From assembly GCA_021803885.1 (NCBI GenBank), contig JAJZKY010000387.1, positions 1 through 5,351 on the forward strand: a stretch of 5,351 bases of DNA. Reading direction: 5' to 3'. Position 1 is the stretch's first letter, and every line of letters begins with the position of its first letter. The stretch comes from Planctomycetota bacterium. Its GTDB lineage: Bacteria; Planctomycetota; Phycisphaerae; WQYP01; JAJZKY01. The position numbers were made by a program, and so were the translations under genes. The notes beneath the pieces were generated by a model. The model was not told the DNA's origin. It did no database searches and saw nothing but the letters and a program-made list of their open reading frames with translations. This document shows, one piece after another, positions 770 to 5,351 of the stretch.

Positions 770-1366
770 CTATTGCAGCAGATAAAATCGTTCCCGCACC
801 CGCTCCACCAGATCCCCTCCCGACTCCAATCCCAGCACCCGGCGGCGCAGGCCGGGAATTTTTTCCATATGCCGGGCCAGCGTCGTAAGCGCCCGCACGT
901 TTTTACCGACATTGAGCCGCGCCGCGTCATCCCAGCCGGCGCCTTCAGCCAGCAATTCGGCCTCTTCGCCCCAATCGAGCCGCAAACTGGGGCGATCAGC
1001 CATGCCTGGATCATCGGGATCAAAGCCTGGGCCAACGGCCAGCCAATGCACCCGGCCCATGCCAGCCTGCCACTGATTCTGCCGCCATTGCATGACGGGC
1101 CACAACTGGGTCAGTTCGTAGGCATAGTCGGAATGATCCCAGGGTTGCAGCCAGGCCAGCACTTCATCCCAGGGGATGGCTTCGGCTTCCGGATGGCTGC
1201 TTTCGGCCAGGCTTGGCTGCTGCCAGTCGAGCGGGGTTACGCGCAGATTGGTAAAACGCAGTTTGCGCACCGGCTCCGGGCAGTGATGCAGCACGGCATC
1301 GAGTTGCCGCAAGGGCGAACTCGGGGTGAACCATAGTTCGAGCTGTACGTGATCCGGCATGGCCAA
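770..1366 (-). CDS. Unrecognised tryptophan-rich soluble protein, TTG start
   Basis: 198 residues with no signal peptide or membrane helix. I do not recognise the family. Eleven tryptophans (about 5.6%) are spread through the chain, many in short patches such as IPWDEVLAWLQPW (64-76) and MQWRQNQW (92-99). The first half is mixed, the middle (about 115-150) is acidic, and the last 45 residues look like basic helices (NVGKNVRALTTLARHMEKI, then PGLRRRVLGL). The start is probably TTG at 1364-1366, because AAGGA at 1374-1378 lies 7 bases upstream; the ATG at 1358-1360, two codons in, would be 13 bases from it. Codon use and protein composition favour this strand over the long opposite-strand frame, which would give a His/Pro/Gln-rich chain. 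Likely cytoplasmic. It sits between an exported protein and a membrane protein in the leftward group, with 120 bases separating it from the former. Confidence 0.75.
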   Translation of the reverse strand: MAMPDHVQLELWFTPSSPLRQLDAVLHHCPEPVRKLRFTNLRVTPLDWQQPSLAESSHPEAEAIPWDEVLAWLQPWDHSDYAYELTQLWPVMQWRQNQWQAGMGRVHWLAVGPGFDPDDPGMADRPSLRLDWGEEAELLAEGAGWDDAARLNVGKNVRALTTLARHMEKIPGLRRRVLGLESGGDLVERVRERFYLLQ

Positions 1367-1486: not shown

Positions 1487-2206
1487 CTAATGCAACGGCA
1501 ACTGAAAACGGATCCCCCCGAGCGTGACCTGAACCTGGCGCAGATGGCCATGGCGGGGGCGGGGCACGATCAGATATCCGGCCAAAATAACTTTTGGACG
1601 AATCCACGCCCGGCCGAGCGGCACATGCAAGGCGGGGCGCAGATTATCGCGCATTTGCCGCAGACGGGCCGCTTCCAGCCGGGCGTCGGCCGCACCCAGC
1701 GGATCCTGCCCGAAGACCTGGCGGGCCTGTGGACTGGTGGGTACAGGAGTACTAGTACCCGAATCCGGCCCGGAATCCACCGGAGGAATCATCACCCCCG
1801 GCCCCTGCCCAAAATTGATGCCGGCGCCCTGCGGGCCGGGATTGATAATGGAAACCTGCACCGGAAGCAGCCAGGCTTGCGGCCGGTGATGCCGCACCAC
1901 CCGGGCCCGCACCCGGGAAGGGTGAAATGCCACCACCCGCTGGCCAAAATTGGTGAGCAACAGCAGGATTTTATCGTAATCGCCCCAATGCCGGCGTGCC
2001 GCCGCCACGCTGAGGCCGGCTCGGGGCAATATCAGCAGGGAAAAATGCCGGCCTTGCAGCTTAGGCCCGCGGCAGGCGGAAAGGCGCAGGCAGACGGCCC
2101 GGCTCGCCGATGCCATCGCCGGAGGGTTGGGCGCTGCCGCCTGGCCCCAGGCTGCCAGGCTGAGCCAGCCAATCATCCCCCATAATTGCAACTGGTTAAA
2201 GCGCAT
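1487..2206 (-). CDS. Unrecognised exported protein with Pro/Ser/Thr linker
   Basis: 239 residues from ATG 2204-2206. A more upstream in-frame ATG (2281) exists, but starting at 2206 puts a clean signal peptide at the N-terminus: hydrophobic core LWGMIGWLSLAAWG (8-21) and a likely cut near QAA (22-24). A purine-rich GAGAG lies about 11 bases upstream. I do not recognise the family. The mature protein has an N-terminal part (about 25-135) with two cysteines (C39, C45) that could form a disulfide, a hydrophobic strand-like ILLLLTNFG (80-88), and a proline/glycine-rich linker (123-162) containing GTSTPVPTSP. A C-terminal domain (about 163-239) follows, with an Arg/Glu helix (175-190) and then probable beta strands ending GIRFQLPLH. 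It may be periplasmic or surface located. Codon use is uniform and typical of coding DNA in this frame. It is the first gene of the leftward group, transcribed away from the cytochrome/molybdoenzyme genes. Confidence 0.7.
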   Translation of the reverse strand: MRFNQLQLWGMIGWLSLAAWGQAAAPNPPAMASASRAVCLRLSACRGPKLQGRHFSLLILPRAGLSVAAARRHWGDYDKILLLLTNFGQRVVAFHPSRVRARVVRHHRPQAWLLPVQVSIINPGPQGAGINFGQGPGVMIPPVDSGPDSGTSTPVPTSPQARQVFGQDPLGAADARLEAARLRQMRDNLRPALHVPLGRAWIRPKVILAGYLIVPRPRHGHLRQVQVTLGGIRFQLPLH

Positions 2207-2306
2207 CCGCGGCTGCTCTCTCAGTATTATGAACGTAAAACCGCGCCAGGCTTGCCCGGTCAAGCGGGCCGGGGCTTTCATGGCTATCAGCGTTCACGGC
2301 CGAGTC

Positions 2307-2535: not shown

Positions 2536-3198
2536 ATGCGTGTGCCGCAACTCAAACATCGCCTCGCCCTGCGCTGGATGCACTGGCTGAACTTCCCCTT
2601 GCTGGGCCTGATGCTCTGGAGCGGCCTATTGATCTACTGGGCCAACGATGTCTATGCGATCACGCTTGGTGGCCATCGTTTTCATTTCTTTCCCCACTGG
2701 ATTTACCAGCATCTGCATTTGCACTACCGTCTGGCTGAAGGCATGGCCGTGCATTTCACGCTGATGTGGCCCTTTGTGCTGAATGGCGTCGCCTATCTGT
2801 GTTTTACCGGTTTCAGCGGGGAATGGCGGGAGCTGATTCCCAATCGCCAAAGCTGGCGGGAAGCCGTGCGGGTGCTGCTCCATGAGCTGCGCTTGAGTAA
2901 AAAGCCTGTGCCCCAGGCCAAATTCAACGCCGCGCAGCGCATCGCGTATTCCACGATCATTCTTTGCGGCGCGGCTTCGGTATTGACCGGGCTGGCCATT
3001 TATAAACCCACGCAGCTTGCCTGGCTCACCCGCCTGCTGGGCGGGTATCAGGCTGCCCGGGCCGAACATTTCATTCTGGCCATGATTTATGCGGTATTTT
3101 TCGTGGTGCATGTCGCGCAGGTGGCCAAAGCCGGCTGGAACAACTTCCGGGCCATGGTGAGCGGCTATGCATGGGCAGAGAAAGAAACTGCGCCATGA
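2536..3198 (+). CDS. Cytochrome b/b6-type (b561/Ni-Fe hydrogenase cytochrome b fold) membrane subunit
   Basis: 220 residues, four membrane helices at about 17-36, 68-92, 135-156 and 177-198. Histidines suited to bind two b hemes are H16 (WMHWLN) at the start of helix 1, H73 (MAVHF) in helix 2, and H178 (AEHF) and H192 (VVHV) in helix 4. This is the pattern of di-heme cytochromes of the b561/Ni-Fe hydrogenase b family, not the ferric-reductase-like MsrQ. A His/aromatic-rich loop (47-64) follows helix 1. The likely role is to take electrons from quinol and pass them to the molybdoenzyme encoded next, with which it overlaps by 4 bases (ATGA), a sign of translational coupling. The start ATG has only a weak GGTGA (2527-2531) 4 bases upstream; GTG two codons later would be spaced 10 bases from it. 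Transcription is probably from the promoter at 2469-2497. Confidence 0.85.
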   Translation: MRVPQLKHRLALRWMHWLNFPLLGLMLWSGLLIYWANDVYAITLGGHRFHFFPHWIYQHLHLHYRLAEGMAVHFTLMWPFVLNGVAYLCFTGFSGEWRELIPNRQSWREAVRVLLHELRLSKKPVPQAKFNAAQRIAYSTIILCGAASVLTGLAIYKPTQLAWLTRLLGGYQAARAEHFILAMIYAVFFVVHVAQVAKAGWNNFRAMVSGYAWAEKETAP

Positions 3199-4154
3199 GC
3201 GATTTTCCGCCCCAACAGGAAAATGCCGGGTTACCGCAGGAGCCCGCGCCTCGGAGCGATGTGCCGCTCGCGATCCCCGGCGACGGTTCATCTCCCTCCA
3301 ATGTCATGGCCGTCACGCCGGCGGCCGCGGTTGAAGCCCAAACCCAGCCTTCTCAGCAACCCGGCTTGCCGGAGCATTCTCCGGCAAAAGCGAGCCGTGA
3401 AATGGGCCGGCGGACCCGGCGCGGCTTTTTGGGGCTGGCCGCGGGCGCAGTTGCCGCCTGGGGCGGATGGGAATGGCTCTGGAGCCGGCCCCAGGCGGGC
3501 CAGATTCCCGCTCCCCTGCGCGATGTCCTGCATTTCAATGAGGCTGTTTCCCGGCGGCTGTTTTTCAGCGACCGTCATCTGGCGCCCAGCTTTCCCTTGA
3601 GCCAGGTTCGCACCCCCATCCGCACCGGGAGCGAGGGGGAGCCGGATCAGCTTCCCGATCTGGCCGCCTGGCGTTTGCATCTGGCTCCGGCCATGCTCGA
3701 TCCCCGCCGCCCGGCCACGGCCCCGGTCCAGTTGATCAGCCTGGCGGAAATTCAGGCTTTGCCGCGGGTTGAATTAATCGCCGAGTTCAAATGCATCGAA
3801 GGCTGGAGCCGGGTCGTGCATTGGACCGGGGTGAGATTTCGGGATTTTGCCCGGCATTTCGGGGTTTTTGCCCCTGCCGGCGCCCGCGCCTATCCCTACG
3901 TGGCCCTAACCACCGCCGATGAAGGTTATTATGTTGGCTTTGACCGGGCCAGCATATTGCATCCCCAGACCCTGCTTGCCTATCAGATGAATGGCCGGCC
4001 TTTAACCCTGAAACATGGCGCCCCGCTGCGCCTGGTTACTACGGTGAAATATGGAATTAAAAACATTAAATGGCTTTCCCGCATTCAGGCCACCACCGCG
4101 CGGCCGCCTGATTATTGGGCCCAGCGAGGTTATGACTGGTATGCTGGGCTATAA
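3195..4154 (+). CDS. Tat-exported molybdopterin-dependent oxidoreductase (sulfite oxidase/MsrP-like fold)
   Basis: 319 residues from ATG 3195, chosen because it forms an ATGA overlap with the cytochrome stop; an in-frame ATG at 3171 would add 8 residues. In order, there is a Pro/Gln/Ala-rich, low-complexity N-terminal region (1-70), a twin-arginine motif T74-R-R-G-F-L79 followed by a hydrophobic stretch (77-96), and then the molybdopterin domain (about 153-300). KCIEGWS (199-205) carries C200, the expected molybdenum ligand, and aligns with CVEAWS in E. coli MsrP. HGAPLRL (274-280) and KYGIKNIKW (285-293) match the conserved pterin-binding end of that domain. The protein ends soon after with RGYDWYAGL, so it lacks the longer C-terminal tail of MsrP. 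It should fold with Mo-cofactor in the cytoplasm and act outside, probably tethered, since no clean AxA site follows the hydrophobic core. The substrate is unproven; reduction of an S- or N-oxide, such as methionine sulfoxide, with electrons from the cytochrome is plausible. Confidence 0.87.
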   Translation: MSDFPPQQENAGLPQEPAPRSDVPLAIPGDGSSPSNVMAVTPAAAVEAQTQPSQQPGLPEHSPAKASREMGRRTRRGFLGLAAGAVAAWGGWEWLWSRPQAGQIPAPLRDVLHFNEAVSRRLFFSDRHLAPSFPLSQVRTPIRTGSEGEPDQLPDLAAWRLHLAPAMLDPRRPATAPVQLISLAEIQALPRVELIAEFKCIEGWSRVVHWTGVRFRDFARHFGVFAPAGARAYPYVALTTADEGYYVGFDRASILHPQTLLAYQMNGRPLTLKHGAPLRLVTTVKYGIKNIKWLSRIQATTARPPDYWAQRGYDWYAGL

Positions 4155-4163
4155 AATACAATA

Positions 4164-4193
4164 TTTCCAAAATTGAACAAATTTAAGTACAAT
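4164..4193 (+). promoter_or_regulatory. Candidate promoter for the Met-rich protein gene
   Basis: An AT-rich stretch begins right at the molybdoenzyme stop. TACAAT (4188-4193) matches the -10 consensus at 5 of 6 positions. The best -35 is TTTCCA (4164-4169, 4/6) at an 18-base spacing. A second TACAAT at 4157-4162 has no -35. Alternatively, GAAC at 4175-4178 might be the -35 of an extracytoplasmic-function sigma promoter. Transcription would start near 4200, giving a leader of about 145 bases. Confidence 0.4.
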
Positions 4194-4210
4194 AGCCTCG
4201 GTTTACTTAG

Positions 4211-4244
4211 GCACTGCCCGGGTAGGCCTGGGCCGGGCTGGTGC
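4211..4244 (+). other. Leader hairpin 1
   Basis: GCAC-T-GCCCGG (4211-4221) pairs with CCGGGC-TG-GTGC (4233-4244) around an 11-base loop: a 10-bp stem with a T/TG internal loop. It is followed only by ATTTGA, too poor in T for a confident intrinsic terminator, although it could still slow or partly end the molybdoenzyme transcript. If the promoter at 4164-4193 is used, it is the first stem of the Met-rich gene leader. Confidence 0.45.
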
Positions 4245-4253
4245 ATTTGACGC

Positions 4254-4269
4254 GGTGGCTGCAGCCACC
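4254..4269 (+). repeat. Leader perfect 16-base palindrome
   Basis: GGTGGCTGCAGCCACC is identical to its reverse complement. As RNA it gives a 6-bp stem with a 4-base loop, or could dimerise; as DNA it could be a protein site. It lies 9 bases after the preceding hairpin and 76 bases before the Met-rich gene. A smaller dyad, ACGGA-C-TCCGT, follows at 4271-4281. Confidence 0.5.
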
Positions 4270-4298
4270 TACGGACTCCGTGTGCGGCGTCAGCTCCG

Positions 4299-4317
4299 GG
4301 ATGAGGAGACATCATCC
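4299..4317 (+). other. Leader hairpin 3 with GGAG in its loop
   Basis: GGATGA (4299-4304) pairs with TCATCC (4312-4317) around the loop GGAGACA. The loop looks like a ribosome-binding sequence but has no suitable start codon after it. The true site for the gene is AAGGA at 4333-4337. It may be part of a regulatory leader or a standby site. Confidence 0.35.
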
Positions 4318-4345
4318 AGTTGAACGGCAAGTAAGGAAAAACCCT

Positions 4346-4738
4346 ATGTTCAAACGGTTGCTGTATAGTCTGCTGACCAGTCTGCTGGCTTTTCTGCTGC
4401 TGGCGCCCCTGGCCGGAGCGATGAGCCTTCAGTCCAAACACAAAATGATGGTCCATGAAAAGATGATGGCCCATAAAAAGAAAATGGCCATGCGTCATAA
4501 GATGGCTCGCCGCCGGATGATGGCGCGCCGCCGGATGATGCGCAGAAAGATGGCGATGCGCCACAAGATGGCGCGCCGCCGGATGGCGATTCATCGCAAG
4601 ATGATGCGCCGCAATATGGCGATGCGCCATAAGATGGCTCGCCGCCGGATGGCCATGCGCCGCAAGATGATGCGCCGTAAAGCGGCCATGCATCACAAAA
4701 TGATGAAGATGAAGAAGAAGATGTCTAAAAAATCATAA
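4346..4738 (+). CDS. Exported Met/Arg/Lys/His-rich repeat protein
   Basis: 130 residues. The start ATG 4346-4348 is set by AAGGA at 4333-4337, 8 bases upstream; the in-frame ATG at 4241 lies inside the leader hairpins and would bury the signal peptide. Residues 1-25 are a classic Sec signal (MFKR, hydrophobic 5-20, PLAGA before the cut). The mature 105 residues contain about 30 Met, 24 Arg, 20 Lys, 9 His and 12 Ala, with one acidic residue and no Cys, Trp, Tyr, Phe or Pro. Three 22-residue repeats (residues 47-112 of the precursor) each open with MAMRHKMARRRM and split into 11-residue halves near M-A-M-R-x-K-M-x-R-R-x. Met-rich exported proteins can be sacrificial oxidant sinks, as MrpX in Azospira suillum, or can bind copper; the high positive charge could also bind nucleic acid, lipid or polyphosphate. 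Next to an MsrP-like reductase, the oxidant-sink role is attractive but inferred. It has its own likely promoter and ends at a terminator. Confidence 0.85.
   Translation: MFKRLLYSLLTSLLAFLLLAPLAGAMSLQSKHKMMVHEKMMAHKKKMAMRHKMARRRMMARRRMMRRKMAMRHKMARRRMAIHRKMMRRNMAMRHKMARRRMAMRRKMMRRKAAMHHKMMKMKKKMSKKS
4484..4681 (+). repeat. Three 66-base tandem coding repeats (six 33-base halves)
   Basis: Copies are at 4484-4549, 4550-4615 and 4616-4681. Their first halves encode the same 11 residues, yet copy 1 and copy 2 differ at four codons (GCC/GCG, CGT/CGC, CAT/CAC, GCT/GCG), all silent; copy 3 differs from each by two silent changes. The second halves vary more (MMARRRMMRRK, MAIHRKMMRRN, MAMRRKMMRRK). 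A decayed seventh half follows at 4682. Protein identity with silent DNA drift suggests selection on the repeat sequence rather than a fresh slippage event. Confidence 0.85.
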
Positions 4739-4798: not shown

Positions 4799-4839
4799 CA
4801 GGAACCGGCGGCATCCTGATTGCGTATGGAGATGTGAAT

Positions 4840-5351
4840 ATGTATTGCAATCATTGCGGACAGAATTTGCCTGAGCAAGCGGCTTTTTGCTCCAATTGCG
4901 GGCAGCGGACCCTGCCCGGCGACGCGCCGGGGGTGTCGGGCATGACGGCTCCCGCGGCCGATCCGGCTCGTGGCCGCACCAGCCGCCACCGTAATACTCT
5001 GGCGATTTTGTGGATTATCTATTCGCTGCTGAAGCTGCCCGGGGTATTGATCATGCTGGGCTTGGGCACCAGCCTGCCCTGGATGATGCACCAGCCCTGG
5101 ATGCATGGCATGCAGCAGGGCGGTTTGAATGGCTGGGTGCCGGGCGTCGCCGCGGGTTGGATGGAGATCATTGGCTGGGTTTTGTTAGTCAGTTTAATCC
5201 TGGGTTTGATTCTGGCCTTCGGCCTGATGCAAAAAGAAGGCTGGGCCCGCATCTACGGCATTGTGATCGGAATTCTGGCGCTGTTATCCATTCCCTTTGG
5301 CACCGCGCTGGGAATCTATACCCTGTGGGTGCTGGCCCCGCAGAGCTCTGA
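4840..5351 (+). CDS. Zinc-ribbon membrane protein, C-terminus cut by the window edge
   Basis: ATG at 4840-4842 with GGAG at 4828-4831, 8 bases upstream; a GTG two codons earlier fits less well. It is open for 170 codons to the edge with no stop. Residues 1-23 form a zinc ribbon with C3xxC6 and C17xxC20 (MYCNHCG, CSNCG). A Gly/Pro/Ala/Arg linker (24-51) follows, then three hydrophobic segments at about 53-75, 105-130 and 137-166. The loop between the first two is rich in Met, His and Trp (PWMMHQPWMHGMQQGG, 80-95) and would face outward if the zinc ribbon is cytoplasmic. The end, IPFGTALGIYTLWVLAP (151-167), is characteristic of a protein type I associate with Acidobacteriota, and such proteins end shortly after this point, so only a few residues are probably missing. 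Function unknown. The terminator before it suggests separate transcription from the Met-rich gene. Confidence 0.85.
   Translation, partial: MYCNHCGQNLPEQAAFCSNCGQRTLPGDAPGVSGMTAPAADPARGRTSRHRNTLAILWIIYSLLKLPGVLIMLGLGTSLPWMMHQPWMHGMQQGGLNGWVPGVAAGWMEIIGWVLLVSLILGLILAFGLMQKEGWARIYGIVIGILALLSIPFGTALGIYTLWVLAPQSS

What the first reader, a model, noticed from the sequence alone, without database searches (positions are those of the whole stretch)
2536..4738. Candidate periplasmic methionine-based oxidant-scavenging module
The sequence shows three consecutive genes: a di-heme-type cytochrome b, a Tat-exported molybdoenzyme with the MsrP-like KCIEGWS and KYGIKNIKW motifs, and a secreted protein whose mature chain is about 29% Met. 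In Azospira suillum a Met-rich periplasmic peptide (MrpX) is oxidised by hypochlorite and re-reduced by MsrP/YedY1 fed by a membrane partner. The logic here would be the same, but the cytochrome is of the b561 type, not MsrQ, and the Met-rich protein is a basic repeat protein, so it would be a distinct version. The functional link is inferred from adjacency; the Met-rich gene seems to have its own promoter.
Basis: partly seen in the sequence, partly recalled or inferred. Interest (0 to 1): 0.82.

Follow-up and report, generated by a model that had tools for sequence, protein, structure and literature searches.

The report
Methionine-rich oxidant sponge with reductase genes
Three neighbouring genes of an Acidobacteria-like bacterium probably make an exported protein that soaks up oxidants with its many methionines and the membrane enzyme pair that repairs it; similar trios occur in several bacterial phyla, but the chemistry has not been tested for this type.

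Summary
In detail: a four-histidine b561-type cytochrome (2536-3198), a Tat-exported sulfite-oxidase-fold molybdoenzyme (3195-4154) and an exported, strongly basic, 29% Met repeat protein (4346-4738). The cytochrome-molybdoenzyme pair is widespread (75 of 80 genome loci) and is neither MsrP by the curated cut-off nor MsrQ by family. A true relative of the Met-rich gene was found only in one 92%-identical locus, but exported Met-rich peptides of other sequence lie beside the same pair in Gemmatales (8 of 11 loci by a fixed filter, 10 of 11 relaxed), some Terriglobia, Rahnella, Caballeronia and E. coli, in some loci with ECF sigma/anti-sigma or two-component genes; most pair loci lack one. In one Gemmatales genome such a lipoprotein lies one gene from a genuine MsrP. 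A uropathogenic E. coli operon that appears to be of this type (c3566-c3568) is already published as a putative peroxide-protective MetO reductase system. Best reading: the pair reduces methionine sulfoxide in the periplasm and recycles the Met-rich protein. The idea is a known kind (MrpX/MsrPQ); new are the link to b561-partnered YedY-like enzymes across phyla and this lineage's cationic Met-rich protein. Activity and inducer are untested.

The parts
2536..3198 (+). b561-type (Ni_hydr_CYTB) cytochrome b, 220 aa, presumed di-heme quinol-to-molybdoenzyme electron carrier
   Evidence: PF01292 57.8 bits; directly upstream of the molybdoenzyme in 75 of 80 loci
2581..2583 (+). His16, candidate heme ligand
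   Evidence: 97% of 78 rows
2752..2754 (+). His73, candidate heme ligand
   Evidence: all 78 rows
3067..3069 (+). His178, candidate heme ligand
   Evidence: all 78 rows
3109..3111 (+). His192, candidate heme ligand
   Evidence: all 78 rows
3195..4154 (+). Tat-exported molybdoenzyme of the sulfite-oxidase fold, 319 aa, YedY-like; presumed methionine sulfoxide reductase
3417..3422 (+). twin arginine of the Tat signal (TRRGFLG)
   Evidence: sequence; each Arg kept in about 60% of rows at these columns; signal assigned by inspection
3792..3794 (+). Cys200, molybdenum ligand, in KCIEGWS
   Evidence: identical in all 81 rows; aligns with the Cys of RCVEAWS in E. coli MsrP
4346..4738 (+). exported Met-rich basic repeat protein, 130 aa, presumed sacrificial methionine pool
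   Evidence: 30 of 105 mature residues Met, pI 12; 33/66-base tandem repeats; dN/dS about 0.25 to L001; signal peptide by inspection

Best explanation
An envelope methionine-redox module. [quoted passage not shown] The Tat-exported YedY-like molybdoenzyme reduces the resulting methionine sulfoxide, in this protein and probably in others (inferred from fold, active-site loop and gene neighbourhood). The four-histidine b561-type cytochrome feeds it electrons from the quinol pool (inferred from family and near-constant pairing). Shown here: gene identities, the conserved pair, and the recurrent adjacency of exported Met-rich peptides of unrelated sequence, in some loci with stress-type sigma/anti-sigma or two-component genes.
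For: (1) In 883,055 bp around 80 relatives, 5 of the 8 exported Met-rich ORFs lie within 204 bp of the pair (one of them is the window's own close relative L001); the other 3 lie 2.4 kb or more away. (2) Gemmatales (order of G017): 8 of 11 loci by the fixed filter, 10 of 11 relaxed; 400 kb of control DNA from five of those genomes gave 5 fixed-filter hits, none MXKDX-like by eye. (3) All 5 MXKDX-model hits in Gemmatales genomes that have the pair are beside it. (4) In genome G077, which lacks the pair, the same kind of lipoprotein lies one ORF upstream of a genuine MsrP, 342 bits over a cut-off of 207. (5) Cytochrome, molybdoenzyme and annotated MXKDX protein are consecutive in Rahnella and Caballeronia, the latter with divergent ECF sigma and NrsF-like anti-sigma genes; Terriglobia L034 has the same layout. 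(6) ECF sigma genes: 12 within 2 kb of the pair, none further out. (7) The published operon c3566-c3568 is co-transcribed and peroxide-induced, and c3566 and c3567 mutants are peroxide-sensitive (PMC8550376 passages).
Against: No enzyme of this b561-partnered group was found with a measured activity in the papers seen. Most pair loci have no Met-rich neighbour: 75 of the first 80 by the strict filter (one of these, L052, has a weak one), and 48 of the 56 loci from the classes of G015, G001 and G024 scanned. The window's Met-rich protein has no detectable homology to MXKDX proteins, so the parallel rests on composition, export and position. No sigma, anti-sigma or two-component gene was seen beside the window's genes or in L001, and G001 has no NrsF match. 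The fold does not separate MsrP from sulfite dehydrogenase.
Confidence: 0.7

Rival explanations
1. The pair is a MetO reductase for general envelope protein repair, and the Met-rich protein has another job (for example copper or silver binding by Met/His motifs) and is merely co-located.
For: 9 His and 30 Met in the mature chain, with 5 HxxM, 3 MxxH, 5 HxM and 6 MxH motifs. P. fungorum L196 has CopC/CopD genes downstream. Two Rhizobium pair loci have response regulators nearer to CusR (58%) than to HprR (51-55%). Some MXKDX peptides, as in K. variicola and Caballeronia, also contain several His.
Against: The Gemmatales peptides beside the same pair have almost no His but are rich in Met, so Met is the shared feature. 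The two Rhizobium loci with CusR-like regulators showed no Met-rich gene.
Confidence: 0.15
2. The enzyme works in the opposite direction, as a sulfite or sulfoxide dehydrogenase that reduces quinone through the FdnI-like cytochrome.
For: PMC10715153 proposes this direction for a similar pair (nSor) in Acidocella (passages). The window cytochrome has weak matches to formate dehydrogenase gamma and FdnI.
Against: Sulfite dehydrogenase models score far below cut-off (SorA 36.1 of 600, SorT 39.7 of 570, SoxC 29.6 of 420). It gives no reason for the Met-rich neighbours or the stress regulators. [quoted passage not shown]
Confidence: 0.1
3. The adjacency in the window is a lineage accident; the Met-rich ORF is a species-specific repeat protein unrelated to the enzyme.
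For: A clear relative is known only in L001/G001, 1 of 14 genomes of its family. The gene is separated from the enzyme by 191 bases, so independent expression is possible.
Against: dN/dS is about 0.25 with no frameshift. The intergenic spacing is identical in L001 (191 bases, 182 identical). In that family a close homologue of the molybdoenzyme (670 bits; next best 71) and the Met-rich gene are both present only in G001. Other Met-rich genes sit in the same place elsewhere.
Confidence: 0.1

Closest known systems
UPEC c3566-c3568 operon (OrhK/OrhR-controlled putative Msr system; PMC8550376, passages seen)
   Same: Order cytochrome b, YedY-like molybdoenzyme, small Met-rich peptide. Related E. 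coli loci carry the names cytochrome b/b6 domain protein and molybdopterin-dependent oxidoreductase; one has a following peptide with 12 Met in 80 residues. The plasmid relative's cytochrome is PF01292.
   Different: The molybdoenzyme of the two related E. coli loci compared is only 30-31% identical to the window's. Its peptide is not strongly cationic. It has a two-component regulator. The sequence of c3566 itself was not examined here.
Azospira suillum MrpX/YedYZ with SigF/NrsF (Melnyk 2015, not held; known here through citing passages) and Brucella BcrXQP (PMC8315932, passages)
   Same: Met-rich periplasmic peptide next to a molybdenum MetO reductase and its membrane cytochrome.
   Different: Those systems are described as MsrPQ (YedYZ) homologues. 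In the window the molybdoenzyme is below the MsrP cut-off and the cytochrome is PF01292, not PF01794 as in E. coli MsrQ; the Met-rich protein does not match TIGR02953; no sigma/anti-sigma gene is adjacent.
YedY-like 'group 1B' sulfite-oxidase-family enzymes (Kappler grouping as described in PMC7759655, passages) and nSor of Acidocella (PMC10715153, passages)
   Same: YedY-like molybdenum subunit with a membrane cytochrome; for group 1B one that differs from that of YedY, for nSor a di-heme cytochrome b.
   Different: The passages seen name no substrate for group 1B and no Met-rich partner for either; nSor is proposed to reduce quinone.
Sco3746 fused heme-b/Moco protein (PMC5449189, passages)
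   Same: Di-heme b membrane part plus Tat-dependent Moco domain.
   Different: One fused polypeptide; no Met-rich protein mentioned in the passages seen.

Membership tests
MsrP (NCBIfam NF003767 equivalog) | score above curated cut-off of 207 bits | tested here: not met
   64.9 bits; a genuine MsrP in G077 scored 342
MsrP (NCBIfam NF003767 equivalog) | Cys in a C-[IV]-E-[AG]-W-S loop and SUOX fold | tested here: met
MsrP (NCBIfam NF003767 equivalog) | MetO reductase activity | not testable with these tools
   needs purified enzyme
MsrQ | ferric-reductase-like membrane domain PF01794 | tested here: not met
   window cytochrome matches only PF01292; E. coli MsrQ matches PF01794
MrpX / MXKDX peptide (TIGR02953) | match to TIGR02953 (cut-off 41 bits) | tested here: not met
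   no match for the window protein at E 1; Rahnella 91.2, K. variicola 81.8 and Caballeronia 50.5
MrpX / MXKDX peptide (TIGR02953) | exported, Met-rich, low-complexity, beside a SUOX-fold enzyme | tested here: met
   signal peptide by inspection
SigF/NrsF-linked MrpX system | ECF sigma and NrsF anti-sigma adjacent | tested here: not met
   none seen in the window or L001; no NrsF match in G001, a 2.8-Mb genome of unstated completeness. Present beside other pairs
YedY-like group 1B | about 30-kDa Mo subunit with a cytochrome other than that of YedY (as described in PMC7759655) | tested here: inconclusive
   partner differs from MsrQ and size is similar (319 aa), but no reference sequence of group 1B was available to compare
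Sulfite dehydrogenase (SorA, SorT, SoxC) | score above curated cut-offs 600, 570, 420 | tested here: not met
   36.1, 39.7, 29.6 bits

The most novel reading that the evidence does not exclude
b561-partnered YedY-like enzymes are a second, phylum-spanning lineage of respiratory MetO reductases, and in several of their branches they are dedicated to recycling sacrificial Met-rich envelope peptides. These peptides are repeatedly replaced by non-homologous sequences, and the window carries an independently evolved cationic version that could coat anionic envelope surfaces and intercept oxidants there.
Probability: 0.4. Interest if true: 0.7.

Novelty: new variant of a known kind. Interest (0 to 1): 0.5.

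Why it matters
The substrate and direction of b561-partnered YedY-like molybdoenzymes are open: one paper calls the wider group likely reductases, another proposes a similar pair as a quinone reductase. The recurrent Met-rich neighbour, found in one bacterial order beside this enzyme and also near a genuine MsrP, points to methionine sulfoxide as substrate and gives a simple test. It also suggests that sacrificial methionine pools arise with different sequences, so they are easily missed by homology searches.

Tried and rejected
NCBIfam and Pfam scans of it gave nothing. Rfam and RNA folding of the 191-base gap gave nothing: no Rfam match at gathering level, three sub-threshold ones in the whole window; fold z -1.2. 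The fold search could not separate reductase from dehydrogenase. A test for extra conservation of Met codons was not significant. L095 and L038 (the same Limnoglobus locus) have no Met-rich gene even with the relaxed filter, and L112 has none although its close relative L110 has. The reversed-order subtype (L201-L218) has none in 18; one composition hit in L207 looked like a non-gene and was not counted. Other hits of the Met-rich query in the window's family were weak (E 0.0025 or more), several with stops. I took L006/G024 ('Nevskia') as a way into Gammaproteobacteria, but the matching genomes returned had the handles of the Terriglobia set, so Pseudomonadota were sampled only through plasmid and E. 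coli records.

Rows dropped or duplicated: L066 and L067 begin inside or just before the enzyme gene and have no room for a cytochrome. L010, L075 and L080 failed the adjacency criterion (same strand, gap -700 to 300 bases); for L010 this is an effect of an overlong ORF start. L094, L095, L097, L098 and L104 repeat L009, L038, L010, L052 and L040; L105, L106, L107, L108 and L116 repeat L048, L003, L002, L034 and L046; L179 repeats L001. The relaxed filter for L098 and L101 (Met at least 7% plus a motif count) was chosen after seeing the strict result, and no control was run with it. The names Gemmatales and Terriglobia for the G sets are inferred from record titles of the centre loci.
Full report
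What is there. The window holds a b561-type cytochrome gene (2536-3198), a molybdoenzyme gene overlapping it by 4 bases (3195-4154) and, after 191 bases, a small gene for an exported Met-rich protein (4346-4738). The cytochrome is PF01292 and the enzyme PF00174; the Met-rich protein matches no Pfam or NCBIfam family. From residue 26 it has 30 Met, 24 Arg, 20 Lys and 9 His in 105 residues, with pI 12, built of 33/66-base repeats. No whole genome is held for the window. The closest locus, L001, is a contig titled Acidobacteria bacterium, 92% identical in the molybdoenzyme and colinear. Against it the Met-rich gene shows dN 0.043 and dS 0.172 without indels.

The enzyme pair. One scan of genome contigs gave 80 loci (the best 80 of 91) whose titles name several phyla. 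In 75 of 80 the cytochrome ORF is directly upstream on the same strand; 78 of 80 have a cytochrome match, and the two without start at or near the enzyme gene. Four histidines spaced as in di-heme cytochromes of this family (spacing recalled) are conserved in 97-100% of 78 rows, and the Mo-ligand Cys in 81 of 81. The enzyme scores 64.9 bits on the MsrP model, whose cut-off is 207, and far below the sulfite dehydrogenase cut-offs. Its loop CIEGWS aligns with CVEAWS of E. coli MsrP. The model (mean pLDDT 79) has the SUOX fold and matches MsrP and SorA equally. E. coli MsrQ is PF01794, a different family from this cytochrome. [quoted passage not shown] another paper proposes quinone reduction for a similar pair in Acidocella (PMC10715153, passages).

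The Met-rich neighbour recurs. A fixed filter (hydrophobic N-terminus, mature Met at least 13%) over the 80 loci (883,055 bp) found 8 ORFs: five within 204 bp of the pair (L001, L009, L010, L034, L040) and three 2.4-4.5 kb away that look like non-genes. In the order of G017 (Gemmatales by its title), 10 of 102 genomes have the enzyme at E 1e-40 or better, in 11 loci. The filter finds a Met-rich, by eye lipoprotein-like, gene just upstream of the cytochrome in 8 of 11, and a relaxed filter chosen afterwards adds two; five of these 11 loci repeat earlier ones. In 400 kb of other DNA from five of these genomes, 5 ORFs pass the fixed filter, none MXKDX-like by eye. The MXKDX model (TIGR02953) hits 14 of 102 genomes, one of them above its cut-off. 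Five hits are in genomes with the pair and all are beside it (G017, G062, G074, G097, G116). One, in G077, a genome without the pair, lies one ORF upstream of a gene scoring 342 bits as MsrP. One, in G054, is a Lys/Glu/Asp-rich ORF with few Met, and seven lie in frames of 285 codons or more.

In the class of G015 (Terriglobia by its title), 30 loci were given (one search had 82 matching genomes of 399) and 5 of the 30 have a Met-rich gene directly behind the enzyme (L108, L109, L110, L111, L131; L108 is L034 again) (filter 10%). 26 more loci gave 3 (L179, which is L001 again, L181, L182); 18 of those 26 have the reversed gene order and none of the 18 has a Met-rich gene. On a tree of 109 enzymes the Met-neighbour label (17 rows, two of them by the relaxed filter) needs 8 changes, against 16.0 in shuffles and 0 of 500 as low, so it is clustered but gained or lost several times. 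The window and L001 group with Gemmatales in one tree (80/93) and with L034 and other class-of-G015 rows in the larger one (98/90); its placement is unsettled.

Pseudomonadota. The Rahnella enzyme, 35% identical to the window's, hits 186 plasmid records at E 1e-40. I opened 14 places, picked by hand across genera. Six have a nearby peptide with 13-21% mature Met: Rahnella sikkimica, R. victoriana, an E. coli plasmid, Caballeronia zhejiangensis and Burkholderia contaminans directly behind the enzyme, and Klebsiella variicola 1.1 kb away on the other strand. P. fungorum has 10%. The other seven have none. Four of the six are annotated 'pentapeptide MXKDX repeat protein'. In Caballeronia the trio faces an ECF sigma gene and an NrsF-like anti-sigma gene (143.6 bits, below the NrsF equivalog cut-off of 300).

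Regulators. L034 has a divergent ECF sigma gene and an NrsF gene (47.5 bits, cut-off 26.8) beside the pair. L175 and L176 have sigma and anti-sigma genes directly after the Met-rich gene (for L175 by Pfam, with zf-HC2 just below its cut-off; for L176 by inspection). L015 and L019 have sigma plus zf-HC2 anti-sigma genes directly upstream. A profile built from four such sigma factors finds 12 sigma genes within 2 kb of the pair and none further away; the stretches within and beyond 2.5 kb hold 358 and 384 kb; three of the 12 were seeds of the profile and three Gemmataceae hits are weaker. Sigma/anti-sigma pairs belong to the MrpX-type systems of Azospira (sigF/nrsF, PMC4623255) and control that of Brucella (BcrS/AbcS, PMC8315932) (passages). 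The window's own lineage shows none of these regulators.

Prior work. PMC8550376 (passages only) describes c3566-c3568 of uropathogenic E. coli: a cytochrome B, a protein 27.6% identical to MsrP and a Met-rich peptide, co-transcribed, induced by peroxide through OrhK/OrhR; c3566 and c3567 mutants show reduced growth with tert-butyl hydroperoxide; substrates unknown. Relatives of the E. coli plasmid enzyme occur in 350 of 5426 E. coli genomes. One chromosomal copy has the same order with a peptide of 12 Met in 80 residues. I did not examine c3566 itself, so its b561 nature is inferred from the plasmid relative. The original MrpX paper is not held. In the literature searches made, in listings and the passages opened, I saw no paper linking b561-partnered YedY-like enzymes and Met-rich peptides across phyla, or a cationic Met-rich peptide of this kind; the library lacks most subscription journals.

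Verdict. It is a new variant of a known kind. The activity, the oxidant and the role of the unusual cationic Met-rich protein are untested.

Noticed in passing
L169 (G077) about 5417-7277: Gemmatales genome in which the MXKDX lipoprotein lies near a genuine MsrP (with one lipoprotein-like ORF, 5706-6302, between) instead of the b561-partnered enzyme.
   Followed up: partly
L022 4281-4874 (-): Fasciclin-domain protein with a DKMDKM-type Met-rich N-terminus, divergent from the cytochrome-enzyme pair.
   Followed up: no
L015 3099-3551 (-) and L019 3160-3612 (+): Thioredoxin-like proteins (L019 by Pfam, L015 by inspection) with a short Met-rich stretch before the domain, next to sigma/anti-sigma genes and the pair.
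   Followed up: no
L191 (K. variicola 6.4-kb plasmid): The four annotated genes of this small plasmid are an IS3 transposase, the cytochrome, the molybdoenzyme and an MXKDX protein.
   Followed up: no
L201-L218: Subtype with reversed order (molybdoenzyme then cytochrome), without Met-rich neighbours.
   Followed up: partly
L006 / G024: Contig titled 'Nevskia soli' comes from a genome whose class search returned genomes with the same handles as the class of G015, so the title looks wrong.
   Followed up: no
L197 1139-1756, L198 1159-1764, L194 3810-4424: A similar exported protein of about 200 aa with few Met beside the pair in Rhizobium and Paraburkholderia, possibly another partner of the enzyme.
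   Followed up: no
window 4834-5349: Zinc-ribbon membrane protein downstream, conserved in place in L001; no sign that it belongs to the module.
   Followed up: no
window 1487-2281 (-) and 770-1366 (-): Two ORFs without any Pfam or NCBIfam match upstream of the module.
   Followed up: no
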